Made by a program: the position numbers and the translations under genes. A stretch of DNA of 64,000 nt from Flexibacter flexilis DSM 6793 (lineage in GTDB: Bacteria; Bacteroidota; Bacteroidia; Cytophagales; Flexibacteraceae): NCBI RefSeq assembly GCF_900112255.1, contig NZ_FOLE01000001.1, forward strand, positions 806,001-870,000, written 5' to 3'. The stretch's first letter is position 1. Each line of letters opens with the position of its first letter. Shown in pieces: positions 21,391 to 24,672 of the stretch. The notes under the pieces were generated by a model. It worked only from the letters and a program-made list of their open reading frames with translations, did no database searches and was not told the origin of the DNA.

Positions 21391-21540
21391 TTTAAAAAGT
21401 ACCAGTCAAAAGCAACAATCGCTCCGAGACGGAGGCCTACGCGTTGAGGATTTGCACCTCTTTCCGACCTGCAAAGGCCGAAACCCTACCTCCTAAGCTG
21501 CGATGAATCTCGTTACTACGGCATTTCGGTTGGTACTTTT
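21391..21540 (-). ncRNA. Y-RNA-like element F (divergent member)
   Basis: The ends pair over 10 bp (AAAAGUACCA / UGGUACUUUU), followed by a short U-run. The 5' strand carries AUGCCGUAGUAACGAG, matching the conserved GUGCCGUAGAAAAGAG of the other copies. The 3' strand carries UUGUUGC. Inside are a T-arm-like hairpin (GAGG-UGCAAAU-CCUC), the same T-loop variant as element B, and a 7-bp stem with a UUGC tetraloop. A D-arm-like segment (GCUUAGGAGGUAGGGU) comes first, so the order differs from copies A, B and D. Least certain member of the array. Confidence 0.45.
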
Positions 21541-21549
21541 TCCATCAAA

Positions 21550-21632
21550 TAACAGAGTGGGCAACAAGTGTCGGGAGTATAAAGATTCGACCCAAACGAA
21601 GTAACTCCCAACGACGGCACCAACCCTCCGTA
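21550..21632 (-). ncRNA. Y-RNA-like element E (short, no tRNA module)
   Basis: About 83 bases. The 5' strand GUGCCGUCGUUGGGAGUUAC pairs with ACUCCCGAC over 9 bp. The 3' strand then carries CUUGUUGCCCA, as in copy A (CUUGUUACCUG). The outer ends pair over 6 bp (ACGGAG / CUCUGU). The conserved GAGUUACUUCG is kept, but only a remnant GUCGAAUC is left where the other copies have T-arm, acceptor stem and D-arm. Its size is close to that of small animal Y RNAs. Confidence 0.5.
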
Positions 21633-21637
21633 TCAGC

Positions 21638-21660
21638 GCGGCGCAAACCGCTATTTTTTT
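21638..21660 (+). terminator. Possible plus-strand terminator between Y-RNA elements D and E
   Basis: AGCG(C)G pairs with CGCT through a one-base bulge around a CGCAAA-type loop and is followed by a run of seven T on the plus strand. It could end read-through from the oxidoreductase gene, preventing antisense transcription through elements A-D. Confidence 0.3.
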
Positions 21661-21664
21661 ATTG

Positions 21665-21809
21665 AAAAAAGAAAAATAGGCAAAAGGCGAAAAAAGAACG
21701 TTTAGGTATTTTAGCCAATTAAACTATACAAACCGAAGTTTGCGCAAGACTCGAACTTGCAACTCCCGCGTGGAAGGCGAAGTAACTCTTTTCTACGGCA
21801 CTATTTTTC
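21665..21809 (-). ncRNA. YrlA-type Y RNA, element D
   Basis: The ends pair over 8 bp (AAAAAUAG / CUAUUUUU) and a further U-run follows. The 5' strand has GUGCCGUAGAAAAGAGUUAC. The tRNA mimic is in permuted order. The T-arm GCAAG-UUCGAGU-CUUGC lies at 21744-21760. Next is a 6-bp acceptor-like stem GCAAAC / GUUUGU closed by UUCG. A D-arm-like segment GUUUAAUUGGCUAAAAU follows, keeping the loop GG. Compared with B, the outer acceptor pair is lost on both strands: one C is deleted and the opposite G is A. Confidence 0.72.
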
Positions 21810-21816
21810 TTTGGGG

Positions 21817-21944
21817 TTAAGAGCAGGCTACAGCCAGAAAGAGCCATGATATTTCACAAACCGAAGTTTGCGGCAAGATTCGAACTTGCAGAGGCTCATG
21901 TACCAGCCATTCGAAGTATCTCTTTCTTACGACACTACTCCTAA
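21817..21944 (-). ncRNA. YrlA-like Y RNA, element C (D-arm missing)
   Basis: The ends pair over 8 bp including G-U pairs (AGGAGUAG / CUGCUCUU). The inner Y stem is AGAAAGAG / CUCUUUCU. The T-arm GCAAG-UUCGAAU-CUUGC (21873-21889) and the acceptor hairpin CGCAAAC-UUCG-GUUUGUG are intact. After the acceptor stem the sequence goes to AAAUAUCAUGGCUC, with no D-arm. CAUGAGCC before the T-arm can pair with GGCUC after it. Confidence 0.62.
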
Positions 21945-21974
21945 TGTCTTTAATATCAATTATTTATTTAAAAT

Positions 21975-22106
21975 AAAAACAGGCAAAAGGCAAAAAGAGT
22001 ATGGCGTTTTGGCTAATTAAACTACACAAACCGAAGTTTGCGGCAAGATTTGCACTTGCAACTCCCGATTAACAGTCGAAGTAACTCTCTTTTACGGCAC
22101 TGTTTT
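21975..22106 (-). ncRNA. YrlA-type Y RNA, element B
   Basis: About 132 bases. The ends pair (AAAACAG / CUGUUUU) and run into a U-tract. The inner stem AAAGAGAGU / ACUCUUUUU is 9 bp with one G-U pair. Permuted tRNA mimic: T-arm GCAAG-UGCAAAU-CUUGC (22043-22059), acceptor stem CGCAAAC / GUUUGUG (22025-22042) closed by UUCG, then UA, then a D-arm GUUU-AAUUAGCCA-AAAC. The T-loop has U55 changed to G and the D-loop GG is AG. It starts only 9 bases after element A. Confidence 0.78.
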
Positions 22107-22115
22107 CTTGGTGGT

Positions 22116-22248
22116 AAAAAGCAGGTAACAAGCGAAAAGAGTAATGTTCTACCAATTAAACTACACAGACTTGCGCCTGCGGCAAGGCTCGAACTTGCAC
22201 CAAACGATTTTTCCAGTCGAAGTAACTCTTTTCTACGACACTGCTTTT
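22116..22248 (-). ncRNA. YrlA-type Y RNA, element A
   Basis: About 133 bases, starting 20 bases after the TROVE stop codon on the same strand. The ends pair over 8 bp (AAAAGCAG / CUGCUUUU). The inner stem GAAAAGAGU (22225-22233) pairs with ACUCUUUUC (22134-22142). Between them lie UGUCGUA and GCUUGUUAC, which resemble the Ro60-binding internal helix of Y RNAs. Permuted tRNA mimic: T-arm GCAAG-UUCGAGC-CUUGC (22182-22198), a 7-bp acceptor stem CGCAGGC / GUCUGUG closed by GCAA (22164-22181), UA, and the D-arm GUUU-AAUUGGUA-GAAC (22146-22161). Confidence 0.82.
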
Positions 22249-22268
22249 ATGTCGTTACGCGCCTTTCT

Positions 22269-23810
22269 TTAGTTTTCGTCTTCCAAAGAAATTTGCTTTA
22301 TCTTGTCCAAAGCACTTTGGCCTTGTTCGATGGCGTTGAGTATCTCAAATATTTTGTCCGACCAACCCGCCAACAAATACACATCGTCGCGGAGGCTGTC
22401 CACTGGCGTGTTACCGTGTCCCGCCAAGTCGAACAAATACAATTTGGCTTTTGGTGCAATACGTTTGTATTGTTTCCATTCTTCTTGCAAAGTAGAACCG
22501 TCTTGCGTCGAGTTCCACAATTGGCAATCCGTGAAAATCATCACTTTATCCATGATGGCATTTCTTGCACGCAAATCTTTTATCACCAAATGTCCGTTGG
22601 TTGAGTAACCTACTTCGCCTTCGCGGCGGTAGAACTCTTGCACGTTGTGCAAAATGCGTTTGCTTTCCATTGGCACGATTTTCCACGTATCGCCGAAAAT
22701 ACCCGTTTCGATATTTTGACAACGGTTACGCAAAAGCATCGCCAACATCAGGCCAATGTCGTAGAGCATCACGCTACTTTTTTGGGAAATAGGCGTTTGC
22801 ATCGACCCCGACACGTCGGCGGCCACCAACACACGCGTATTTGCATCAAAACCCTGAATATTGGCTGCCGTATGGCGCACGGCCATTTCTAAGGCTTCTA
22901 TTAGTCTTTGGGTGGCCTCGCGGTTTGTTTTTTCGTTGGCCAAAAGTTCGCGATATGCCGACAAATAACGAAAAGGCAATTGTTTGGCTGCTGCCACCGC
23001 CGCAGGCTCGGCCAACGTGTTGGCTACTCGCCCGATAGCTTCTGCCGAAATATTGGCTTCCAGCATGTTGCGCAAGTTGCGAAGCATGGCCATATAACCC
23101 AATTTCCCACTGAAAATCAACTCTTCCCACTTGGCGCACACGGCGCGGCGGCGTTCTTGGTCGTTAGCGAAAGTTTGTTGCCCTAAGGCCGAAAGTTCTG
23201 TTTCCCATGTGTATGGCGTGGCCAGCGTTTGGGCGGCTATTTTGTTGAAAATCTCTTGTTGCGCTTCGTTTTTTGCCTTTGGGTGAACCAAAAACAAGGC
23301 ATCACGCAACTTGATTTCCGCCCCTTGACGGTCATATTTGGCAAATTGGTATTCGTCGAAGCGGTTGAAAGCCTTGGCCAAACCTTTTTGTATTTGTTTG
23401 GAAAGTTTGTTGAGTTTTTTCACGCCTTTGCGTTGGTTGGCAAACTGGTAGTAAGCCAACAGTTCCGTAATTTCGTCGGCACGCAAAATCACTTGGCCAA
23501 TGGCACGGCTCAAATAAAAGTCGCCACTCAACAAAGGGGCAGCCTCCACCAGCAACACCAAAGGCACGCTGCGCAAGTGCATTTTTTGGCGTGTATAAAT
23601 GGCCAATTGCAGCACAAATTCAGGCTTATTTTGGCCAATGAGTTGGCGGATACGCTCCAAACGTTCGCTTCCTTTTTCGTAGAAGTTGTCGCTCAAAGAT
23701 GCCGTAACGACCGCCGTGTAAAGTTCCAACGCTGGCGAGAGTGCGTAAGCGGTTGCGCCTTCGTGGTTTGTTACTTTTTTTGCCCCTTTTTTTAACCAAT
23801 TGAATAGCAT
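22269..23810 (-). CDS. TROVE domain protein, Ro60/Rsr orthologue (513 aa)
   Basis: Residues about 15-320 form the helical-repeat TROVE ring (EGATAYALSPALELYTAV, FVLQLAIYTRQKMHLRSVPL). A von Willebrand A domain follows, with the metal site DVSGSM at about residue 335 and later IFTDCQLWNS. In animals Ro60 holds misfolded RNAs and Y RNAs; bacterial Rsr works with PNPase and YrlA RNAs in RNA processing and stress survival. The six Y-RNA-like elements directly downstream on the same strand strongly support this role here. Length is normal. A perfect palindrome lies upstream at 23874-23896. Confidence 0.95.
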   Translation of the reverse strand: MLFNWLKKGAKKVTNHEGATAYALSPALELYTAVVTASLSDNFYEKGSERLERIRQLIGQNKPEFVLQLAIYTRQKMHLRSVPLVLLVEAAPLLSGDFYLSRAIGQVILRADEITELLAYYQFANQRKGVKKLNKLSKQIQKGLAKAFNRFDEYQFAKYDRQGAEIKLRDALFLVHPKAKNEAQQEIFNKIAAQTLATPYTWETELSALGQQTFANDQERRRAVCAKWEELIFSGKLGYMAMLRNLRNMLEANISAEAIGRVANTLAEPAAVAAAKQLPFRYLSAYRELLANEKTNREATQRLIEALEMAVRHTAANIQGFDANTRVLVAADVSGSMQTPISQKSSVMLYDIGLMLAMLLRNRCQNIETGIFGDTWKIVPMESKRILHNVQEFYRREGEVGYSTNGHLVIKDLRARNAIMDKVMIFTDCQLWNSTQDGSTLQEEWKQYKRIAPKAKLYLFDLAGHGNTPVDSLRDDVYLLAGWSDKIFEILNAIEQGQSALDKIKQISLEDEN

Positions 23811-23873: not shown

Positions 23874-23896
23874 ACTACGCAACCTAATTGCGTAGT
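23874..23896. promoter_or_regulatory. Palindrome upstream of the TROVE gene, possible operator
   Basis: ACTACGCAA and TTGCGTAGT form a perfect 9-bp inverted repeat around CCTAA, 64 bases before the TROVE start. On the minus strand a near -7 box (CACCTTTG) follows within 20 bases. The position fits an operator or a leader hairpin. Confidence 0.45.
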
Positions 23897-23968
23897 AAAA
23901 TTATTTTCAAAAATATTTTTTAGCCAAAAACACAATCAATTGATTTTTAGTTATTTGTAAAATAAAAA

Positions 23969-24001
23969 CTCCGCTAAAATCTTAAAGAATCTTAGCGGAA
24001 T
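23969..24001. terminator. Hairpin with paired arms CCGCTAA / TTAGCGG
   Basis: An imperfect stem-loop (CCGCTAAAATCTT / AAGAATCTTAGCGG) between the TROVE promoter region and the REP-like array. Weak as a terminator because no T-run follows. Confidence 0.3.
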
Positions 24002-24118: not shown

Positions 24119-24134
24119 TCTCATACCTAAAACT

Positions 24135-24672
24135 CATTACTACCAAGATACCAAGCCTAAAGGCTTTAATCTATTTTGAAATAAATCCGTTAGGATTGAA
24201 ATCTTTGTAGCTCAAAGCAACATAACACACCACAAACGCCGTAGGCATGGCATCTTGATTTTATTTAGCATTCATTACTACCAAGATACCAAGCCTAAAG
24301 GCTTTAATCTATTTTGAAATAAATCCGTTAGGATTGAAACCTTTGTAGCTCAAAGCAACATAACACACCACAAACGCCATAGGCGTGGTATCTTTTCCTT
24401 AGCATTCATTACTACCAAGATACCAAACCTAAAGGTTTTAATCTATTTTGAAATAAATCCGTTAGGATTGAAACCTTTGTAGCTCAAAGCGATATAACAC
24501 ACCACAAACGCCATAGGCGTGGTATCTTTTCCTTAGCATTCATTACTACCAAGATACCAAACCTAAAGGTTTTAATCTATTTTGAAATAAATCCGTTAGG
24601 ATTGAAACCTTTGTAGCTCAAAGCGATATAACACACCACAAACGCCGTAGGCGTGGCATCTTGATTTTATTT
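24135..24672. repeat. Four-copy tandem array of a ~134-bp REP-like unit
   Basis: Units start CATTACTACCAAGATACC at 24135, 24273, 24407 and 24541 (spacing 138, 134, 134). Each unit holds four small inverted repeats: AAGCCTAAAGGCTT, ATCCGTTAGGAT, CTTTGTAGCTCAAAG and ACGCCRTAGGCGT. The pattern of short hairpins with GCCGTAGGC and CTTTGTAGC resembles Bacteroidota REP sequences spread by RAYT transposases, but no transposase gene is in the window. Copies differ by a few substitutions (GCAACA/GCGATA, AAGCC/AAACC). Confidence 0.88.

What the first reader, a model, noticed from the sequence alone, without database searches (positions are those of the whole stretch)
21391..22248. Six-member Y-RNA array directly downstream of a Ro60/Rsr (TROVE) gene
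The 883 bases after the flavodoxin-fold gene hold no ORF but six tandem, related structured elements on the same strand as the TROVE gene. Each begins with YAGUGYCGUA-like sequence, continues with RAAAGAGU, and ends with a strand that pairs with it and carries a CUUGUUAC/CCUUUUGCC-like segment. This is the layout of a Ro60-binding Y-RNA stem. Known bacteria with Rsr usually have one or a few Y RNAs, so a tightly packed set of six, with several subtypes, could be a new arrangement.
Basis: partly seen in the sequence, partly recalled or inferred. Interest (0 to 1): 0.92.

Follow-up and report, generated by a model that had tools for sequence, protein, structure and literature searches.

The report
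Six Y RNA genes behind Ro60
Right behind a bacterial version of the human lupus protein Ro60 lie six genes for its small partner "Y RNAs", several of them shaped like rearranged tRNAs; such clusters turn out to be normal across this bacterial phylum, and they share a previously unnoticed control site that seems to place them among RNA-repair genes.

Summary
Downstream of a true Ro60/Rsr gene (22269-23810, minus strand) lie six related structured elements, all on that strand. A covariance model built from relatives finds all six (118, 115, 80, 111, 42 and 20.7 bits; next best in the region 7.6). Pairing is backed by compensatory changes in 23 of 25 base pairs of an alignment not fitted to the model, and strong hits and Ro60 genes co-occur in 93 of 97 genomes that have either.

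They are Y RNAs of the YrlA kind. E1-E4 carry a circularly permuted tRNA-like domain (T arm, closed 7-bp acceptor-like hairpin, D arm; E3 lacks the D arm); E5 is a short form without it; E6 is divergent.

The claim of a new arrangement fails: 80 Bacteroidota Ro60 loci have a median of 4 hits (up to 8), all on the Ro60 strand, so six is in the upper normal range. Rfam's YrlA model misses them at its cut-off.

The unexpected part lies outside the coordinates. A dyad CTRCGCA-N7-TGCGYAG, overlapping the predicted promoter, is conserved upstream of 70 of 79 Bacteroidota Ro60 genes and elsewhere sits between WYL regulators and RtcB. It suggests a WYL-controlled RNA-repair regulon. Transcription and binding remain untested.

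The parts
22269..23810 (-). Ro60/Rsr (TROVE + vWA) protein, 513 aa, the only copy in the genome
   Evidence: Pfam TROVE 6.2e-29 and vWA_Ro60 7.9e-8; AlphaFold model pLDDT 82 whose best Foldseek matches are all Ro60/Rsr, e.g. 1yvp TM 0.74; single copy; DVSGSM metal site kept
22112..22250 (-). E1: Y RNA with the most complete tRNA-like domain
   Evidence: R2 118.1 bits; Rfam YrlA 28.0 bits
22182..22198 (-). E1 T arm, GCAAG UUCGAGC CUUGC, 5 bp with 7-nt loop
   Evidence: sequence; column-wise covariation
22164..22181 (-). E1 acceptor-like 7-bp hairpin closed by a tetraloop (no free 3' end)
   Evidence: sequence; covariation in helix 4
22146..22161 (-). E1 D arm, GUUUAAUUGGUAGAAC
   Evidence: sequence; covariation
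21970..22109 (-). E2: Y RNA, tRNA-like, with altered T and D loops
   Evidence: R2 115.4 bits
21814..21944 (-). E3: Y RNA with T arm and acceptor-like hairpin but no D arm
   Evidence: R2 80.4 bits, D arm deleted in the alignment
21667..21810 (-). E4: Y RNA, tRNA-like, D arm partly degenerate
   Evidence: R2 111.1 bits; Rfam YrlA 25.0 bits
21548..21629 (-). E5: short Y RNA (82 nt), Ro-binding stem only
   Evidence: R2 42.2 bits; same class in 62 relatives of at most 90 nt, covarying
21394..21541 (-). E6: divergent Y RNA; outer stem AAAAAGUACCA/UGGUACUUUUU, motif AUGCCGUAG..GCUUUUGAC, unrelated upper domain; ends in a U run
   Evidence: R2 20.7 bits, E 4e-5; repeat family D1; no Rfam match
23874..23896 (.). 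Candidate operator ACTACGCAA-N5-TTGCGTAGT upstream of the Ro60 gene
   Evidence: same dyad at 12 of 14 positions or better in 70 of 79 relatives; only match with fewer than 3 mismatches in the genome
23859..23866 (-). Candidate -7 box CACCTTTG; the dyad's TTG would be the -33 box
   Evidence: TTTG follows the dyad at a near-constant distance in most relatives printed; inferred from the known Bacteroidota promoter type
23968..24001 (-). Terminator-like hairpin with T run, separating the Ro60 transcription unit from the gene upstream
   Evidence: 14-bp stem plus T tail; pattern match only, number found not above shuffles

Best explanation
The six elements are Y RNAs that partner the Ro60 protein encoded just before them, in one transcription unit. 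Each folds back so that its 5' and 3' ends form the Ro60-binding stem (outer helix, conserved UGYCGUA / CUUGUUGCC internal loop, inner helix plus conserved UUACUUCG). The upper part differs: E1, E2 and E4 carry a permuted tRNA mimic, E3 a version without D arm, E5 only the stem, E6 another fold. As in Deinococcus and Salmonella, the stem would dock on Ro60 while the upper part tethers an effector (PNPase is the known one, and a PNPase gene is present) or blocks access to the Ro60 ring, so one protein is given several interchangeable adaptors. The operon is probably induced under RNA or DNA damage by a WYL-WCX regulator binding CTRCGCA-N7-TGCGYAG over the promoter. Shown: homology, fold by covariation, strand, position, co-occurrence, conservation of the dyad and its link to WYL and RNA-repair genes. 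Inferred: transcription, binding to Ro60, the effector, WYL binding and the inducing signal.
For: Covariation on a MAFFT alignment (42 long members): 96.4% of cells paired, 23 of 25 pairs with compensatory changes, score 0.686 against 0.225 shuffled and 0.11-0.16 slid. Short class (32 members): 0.770 against 0.227. In 390 genomes of the order, 93 of 96 TROVE+ genomes have strong hits (E<1e-10) against 1 of 294 without TROVE, Fisher p 2.6e-85. All 334 motif-bearing hits near 80 named Ro60 genes are on the Ro60 strand, 319 of them downstream. 72 of 79 loci have at least one member with T and D arms. Ro60 fold. PNPase present. Y RNAs were co-precipitated with Ro60 of Bacteroides thetaiotaomicron, same phylum (review PMC11277228). 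Dyad in 70 of 79 upstream regions, linked to WYL, RtcB, RlaP and Rnl1.
Against: No expression or binding data. Rfam's own YrlA cut-off is not reached by any member here or in the 15 relatives tested. E6 rests on one 20.7-bit hit and its conserved ends. The WYL gene of this genome is on another contig with no copy of the dyad nearby, and the genome has no RtcB. Hymenobacter Ro60 loci have Y arrays but neither dyad nor WYL, so this control is not universal. 8 of 18 Ro60 loci from WYL+ genomes examined lack the dyad within 600 nt. The co-occurrence counts are not corrected for relatedness.
Confidence: 0.82

Rival explanations
1. Degenerate tRNA gene array: the elements are decaying or aberrant tRNA genes that happen to lie next to Ro60.
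For: T and D arms look like tRNA; some relatives interleave real tRNA genes with these elements (up to 17 tRNA genes within a locus); Rfam calls a tRNA at 22035-22170.
Against: ARAGORN finds no tRNA here. The arms are in permuted order and the acceptor-like stem is closed by a tetraloop, so no amino-acid acceptor end exists. The Rfam tRNA call joins the D arm of E1 with the T arm of E2 over a 39-nt gap. The stems keep pairing by compensatory change over many genera, unlike decay. Hits follow Ro60, not tRNA arrays.
Confidence: 0.04
2. Only some copies work: E1 (perhaps E2 and E4) is the functional Y RNA, and E3, E5 and E6 are decaying duplicates kept by chance.
For: E2-E4 show altered D or T loops and E6 is divergent. 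Published accounts describe few Y RNAs per species; Salmonella has yrlB and yrlA (PMC7790460).
Against: The short E5-like class is itself conserved with 15 of 15 pairs compensated, and members without tRNA arms occur in 64 of 79 loci. Multi-member arrays are the rule.
Confidence: 0.2
3. The tRNA-like Y RNAs act as decoys for tRNA-cutting nucleases (or shield Ro60), rather than as adaptors to PNPase.
For: The dyad ties the operon to RtcB, RlaP and an Rnl1-type ligase in relatives, i.e. to repair of cut RNA; tRNA arrays accompany Ro60 in several genomes; the decoy idea was raised for Salmonella YrlA (PMC7790460).
Against: The domain has no anticodon loop: the anticodon end opens into the Ro60 stem (structure). 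Salmonella YrlA was not cut by the anticodon nuclease. Short members have no tRNA part at all.
Confidence: 0.2
4. The region is a structured 3' UTR or processing signal of the Ro60 mRNA acting only in cis.
For: It starts 18 nt after the Ro60 stop codon and no separate promoter was recognised.
Against: 15 hits in relatives lie upstream of Ro60 and some members are over 1 kb away or between tRNA genes; the tRNA mimic and the Y-type ends have no evident cis role.
Confidence: 0.05

Closest known systems
YrlA (Rfam RF02553), the tRNA-like bacterial Y RNA of Salmonella and others
   Same: Terminal Ro-binding stem with CUUGU near the 3' side; permuted order T arm, closed acceptor-like hairpin, D arm; encoded next to Ro60
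   Different: Here in a tandem set of several forms; sequence too far for Rfam's cut-off (28 against 69 bits); no RtcB in this genome and no RtcR-type operon found
YrlB / Deinococcus Y RNA (members reported beside Ro60, not required to be tRNA-like)
   Same: Same placement beside Ro60, same proposed role as scaffold and gate; E5 would be the counterpart of a form without tRNA mimicry
   Different: No sequence comparison made here; E5 is shorter (82 nt)
Ro60 and Y RNAs of Bacteroides thetaiotaomicron (Greiling et al. 2018, via PMC11277228)
   Same: Same phylum, Ro60 with co-precipitating Y RNAs
   Different: Number and layout of its Y RNAs not examined here
WYL regulators such as SiwR of Mycobacterium smegmatis (PMC10693628)
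   Same: WYL factor binding a palindrome over the promoter between -35 and -10
   Different: SiwR controls DinB-like genes with a different 19-bp palindrome; the Ro60 dyad here is only inferred to be a WYL site

Membership tests
Bacterial Y RNA (YrlA kind) | Encoded beside a Ro60 orthologue | tested here: met
   18 nt after the TROVE gene; co-occurrence p 2.6e-85
Bacterial Y RNA (YrlA kind) | 5' and 3' ends form a conserved interrupted stem | tested here: met
   helices 1 and 2, 16 of 16 pairs with compensatory changes, about 95% paired
Bacterial Y RNA (YrlA kind) | tRNA-like domain with T arm, closed acceptor-like stem and D arm in at least one member | tested here: met
   E1 complete; E2 and E4 altered; E3 without D arm; E5 and E6 without it
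Bacterial Y RNA (YrlA kind) | Match to Rfam RF02553 at its gathering score | tested here: not met
   28.0 and 25.0 bits against 69; relatives reach at most 52.6. The cut-off is a curator's score, not a biological trait, and the E-values (0.0012, 0.009) are significant; I treat the model as too narrow
Bacterial Y RNA (YrlA kind) | Transcribed, and bound by Ro60 | not testable with these tools
   needs RNA-seq and pull-down
Ro60/Rsr protein | TROVE HEAT ring plus vWA domain | tested here: met
   Pfam, Foldseek top hits all Ro60/Rsr
RNA-repair (Rtc) operon member | Ro60 and Y RNA together with RtcB | tested here: not met
   no RtcB in this genome, though within the fetched stretch of 37 of 80 relatives
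tRNA gene | Canonical order and acceptor end | tested here: not met
   ARAGORN none; the Rfam tRNA hit spans two elements

The most novel reading that the evidence does not exclude
Across Bacteroidota outside Hymenobacter, Ro60 with its set of Y RNAs is part of an RNA-damage regulon controlled by one WYL-WCX regulator through the dyad CTRCGCA-N7-TGCGYAG, which also drives RtcB, RlaP and Rnl1-type ligases and, in some genomes, mixed arrays of Y RNAs and tRNAs; the several Y RNAs are distinct adaptors that give one Ro60 different partners.
Probability: 0.5. Interest if true: 0.65.

Novelty: new member of a known kind. Interest (0 to 1): 0.45.

Why it matters
The function of bacterial Y RNAs has been studied in very few species, and why a cell should need several is open. 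A compact set of complete, altered, short and divergent forms behind one Ro60 gene lets that be tested by deleting members one at a time. The models show that Y RNAs are far commoner in Bacteroidota than Rfam's cut-off reveals, including relatives of gut bacteria whose Ro60 has been linked to lupus. The conserved promoter dyad gives the first testable handle, as far as the library searched shows, on how Ro60-Y operons are switched on in this phylum.

Tried and rejected
Rfam at gathering score gives only a chimeric tRNA call. Folding energy alone is not convincing. E6 as an unpermuted tRNA mimic (D-like, hairpin, T-like order) was considered; Rfam gives no tRNA match and I found no homologues of its upper part, so it is dropped. 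The dyad as an RNA hairpin was considered; in several relatives its halves combine A with C (CTACGCA with TGCGCAG), which breaks pairing but keeps each half-site, so a DNA site fits better. The only TROVE-less genome with strong Y hits (G112) has them at a contig end, so a missing Ro60 gene there may be a gap. The main bacterial Y RNA papers (Chen 2014, Sim and Wolin 2018, Wang 2018) and a paper on RNA repair systems (gkw722) are not held; statements on them rest on citing papers or memory. The reversed-pattern control for the dyad gave 2 sites against 47 in 65 genomes.

Full report
What is there. On the minus strand a 513-aa protein gene (22269-23810) is followed after 18 nt by about 860 nt without a credible coding gene, up to the convergent flavodoxin-like gene. 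The protein is Ro60/Rsr: Pfam TROVE 6.2e-29 and Ro60 vWA 7.9e-8. An AlphaFold model (pLDDT 82) matches Ro60 with bound RNA (1yvp, TM 0.74), Ro60 of a Thermus phage and Deinococcus Rsr before anything else. It is the only copy in the 4.25-Mb genome.

The six elements. A repeat search gives six copies of one 34-nt motif. E1-E4 align end to end. I wrote down the structure from E1, built model R1, and found it throughout Bacteroidota Ro60 loci. Model R2 from 62 sequences recovers all six in the window, E6 weakly. In the family, R1 hits occur only in the two genomes with Ro60, always beside it; nine genomes without Ro60 have none.

Anatomy. From 5' to 3': an outer helix; conserved UGYCGUA; an inner helix; conserved UUACUUCG; a T arm with UUCGANUC-like loop; a 7-bp hairpin closed by a short loop; UA; a D arm with AGNNGGUA-like loop; then the 3' strands with CUUGUUGCC opposite UGYCGUA. 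Five T-stem pairs and seven acceptor-like pairs are the numbers of a tRNA. The order is permuted: the acceptor end is closed and the anticodon end opens into the Y stem. That is the layout described for YrlA, which is modified by tRNA enzymes (PMC8394870). E3 has lost the D arm, E5 the whole tRNA part, and E6 has a different upper part.

Covariation. On A4, fitted to the model, all 32 pairs show compensatory changes. On the MAFFT alignment A5, not fitted to it, 23 of 25 pairs do, 96.4% of cells pair, and sliding the partner by one column drops this to about 50%. The short class tested with E5 behaves alike.

How unusual is six? In 80 named Bacteroidota loci I count 334 hits with the 5' motif, all on the Ro60 strand and 319 downstream, with a median of 4 per locus, a maximum of 8, and six or more in 14 of 77 loci with enough flank. 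At this threshold the window would count as five. Lengths are bimodal, near 80 and near 145 nt. So an array of mixed forms is the normal state in this phylum. The search cannot say whether earlier authors counted them: the key papers are not held.

Co-occurrence. In 390 genomes of the order, 96 have Ro60 and 94 have a strong Y hit; 93 are shared, Fisher p 2.6e-85. Phylogenetic relatedness is not corrected for. Of the three Ro60-positive exceptions, two hold only fragments of the gene.

Control region. Upstream of the Ro60 gene lies the dyad ACTACGCAA-N5-TTGCGTAGT (23874-23896). In 79 relatives the form CTRCGCA-N7-TGCGYAG is matched at 12 or more of 14 positions in 70 (64 at 13 or 14); shuffled upstream sequence gives 0.1 expected, and windows inside the gene none. 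A TTTG follows at near-constant distance, as expected for the -7 box of Bacteroidota promoters, so the dyad would overlap the -33 box. In a sample of 65 genomes exact dyads are rare (47 sites against 2 for the reversed pattern). They stand before Ro60, between divergent WYL-WCX and RtcB genes, or before RlaP and an Rnl1-type ligase. A WYL relative lies divergently upstream in about 35 of the 80 loci, and RtcB lies within the fetched stretch in 37. Among 32 Ro60 loci of the order, all 10 with a dyad come from genomes with the WYL protein, and none of the 14 loci in genomes without it has a dyad (p 0.0013). Hymenobacter lacks both. This genome has one WYL homologue (49% identity) on another contig, a partial RlaP match, PNPase and no RtcB.

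Mechanism. Deinococcus Y RNA tethers Rsr to PNPase for decay of structured RNA (PMC7790460; PMC4726728). With PNPase present and RtcB absent, that is the likeliest role here. Several upper domains on one kind of stem would then be exchangeable adaptors or gates. WYL factors sense nucleic acid and can bind palindromes over promoters (SiwR, PMC10693628), which makes damage-induced expression plausible. None of this was shown here for these RNAs.

Verdict. A real Y RNA array, ordinary for its phylum in size but poorly covered by Rfam, with a conserved candidate operator that deserves its own follow-up.

Noticed in passing
window 23874-23896, and upstream of Ro60 in L033-L112: Conserved dyad CTRCGCA-N7-TGCGYAG over the predicted promoter in 70 of 79 Bacteroidota Ro60 loci; also before RtcB, RlaP and Rnl1-type ligase genes and beside WYL regulators.
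   Followed up: partly
L033, L034, L038, L039, L043, L045, L060: Ro60 loci with 9-17 tRNA genes, in several cases interleaved with Y RNA elements (L038, L039, L045); in the Emticicia genome G301 a dyad lies about 2.1 kb upstream of Ro60, ahead of most of the mixed array.
   Followed up: partly
window 22035-22170: Rfam tRNA call above its cut-off is an artefact: the D arm of E1 joined to the T arm of E2, possible because permuted tRNA mimics stand in tandem.
   Followed up: yes
window 24134-24662: About four tandem copies of a 134-bp non-coding unit (95% matches) between the DUF5723 gene and the Ro60 unit.
   Followed up: no
L120, L121, L135, L137: A roughly 300-aa family of unknown function (SLRQKAIFIPE..LGYGVSE) recurs within about 1 kb of dyad copies that are not at Ro60.
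   Followed up: no
L004, L006, L008, L010, L012, L015 and L024, L026-L032 (order genomes without the WYL protein; named counterparts are Hymenobacter): Ro60 with Y arrays but without the dyad and without the WYL regulator, so another control must exist in this lineage.
   Followed up: partly
phage records H1-H8; plasmid records H9-H16: Ro60 homologues occur in 95 phage records (Bacteroides, Caulobacter, Halogranum and others) and on 75 plasmids, including haloarchaeal ones.
   Followed up: no
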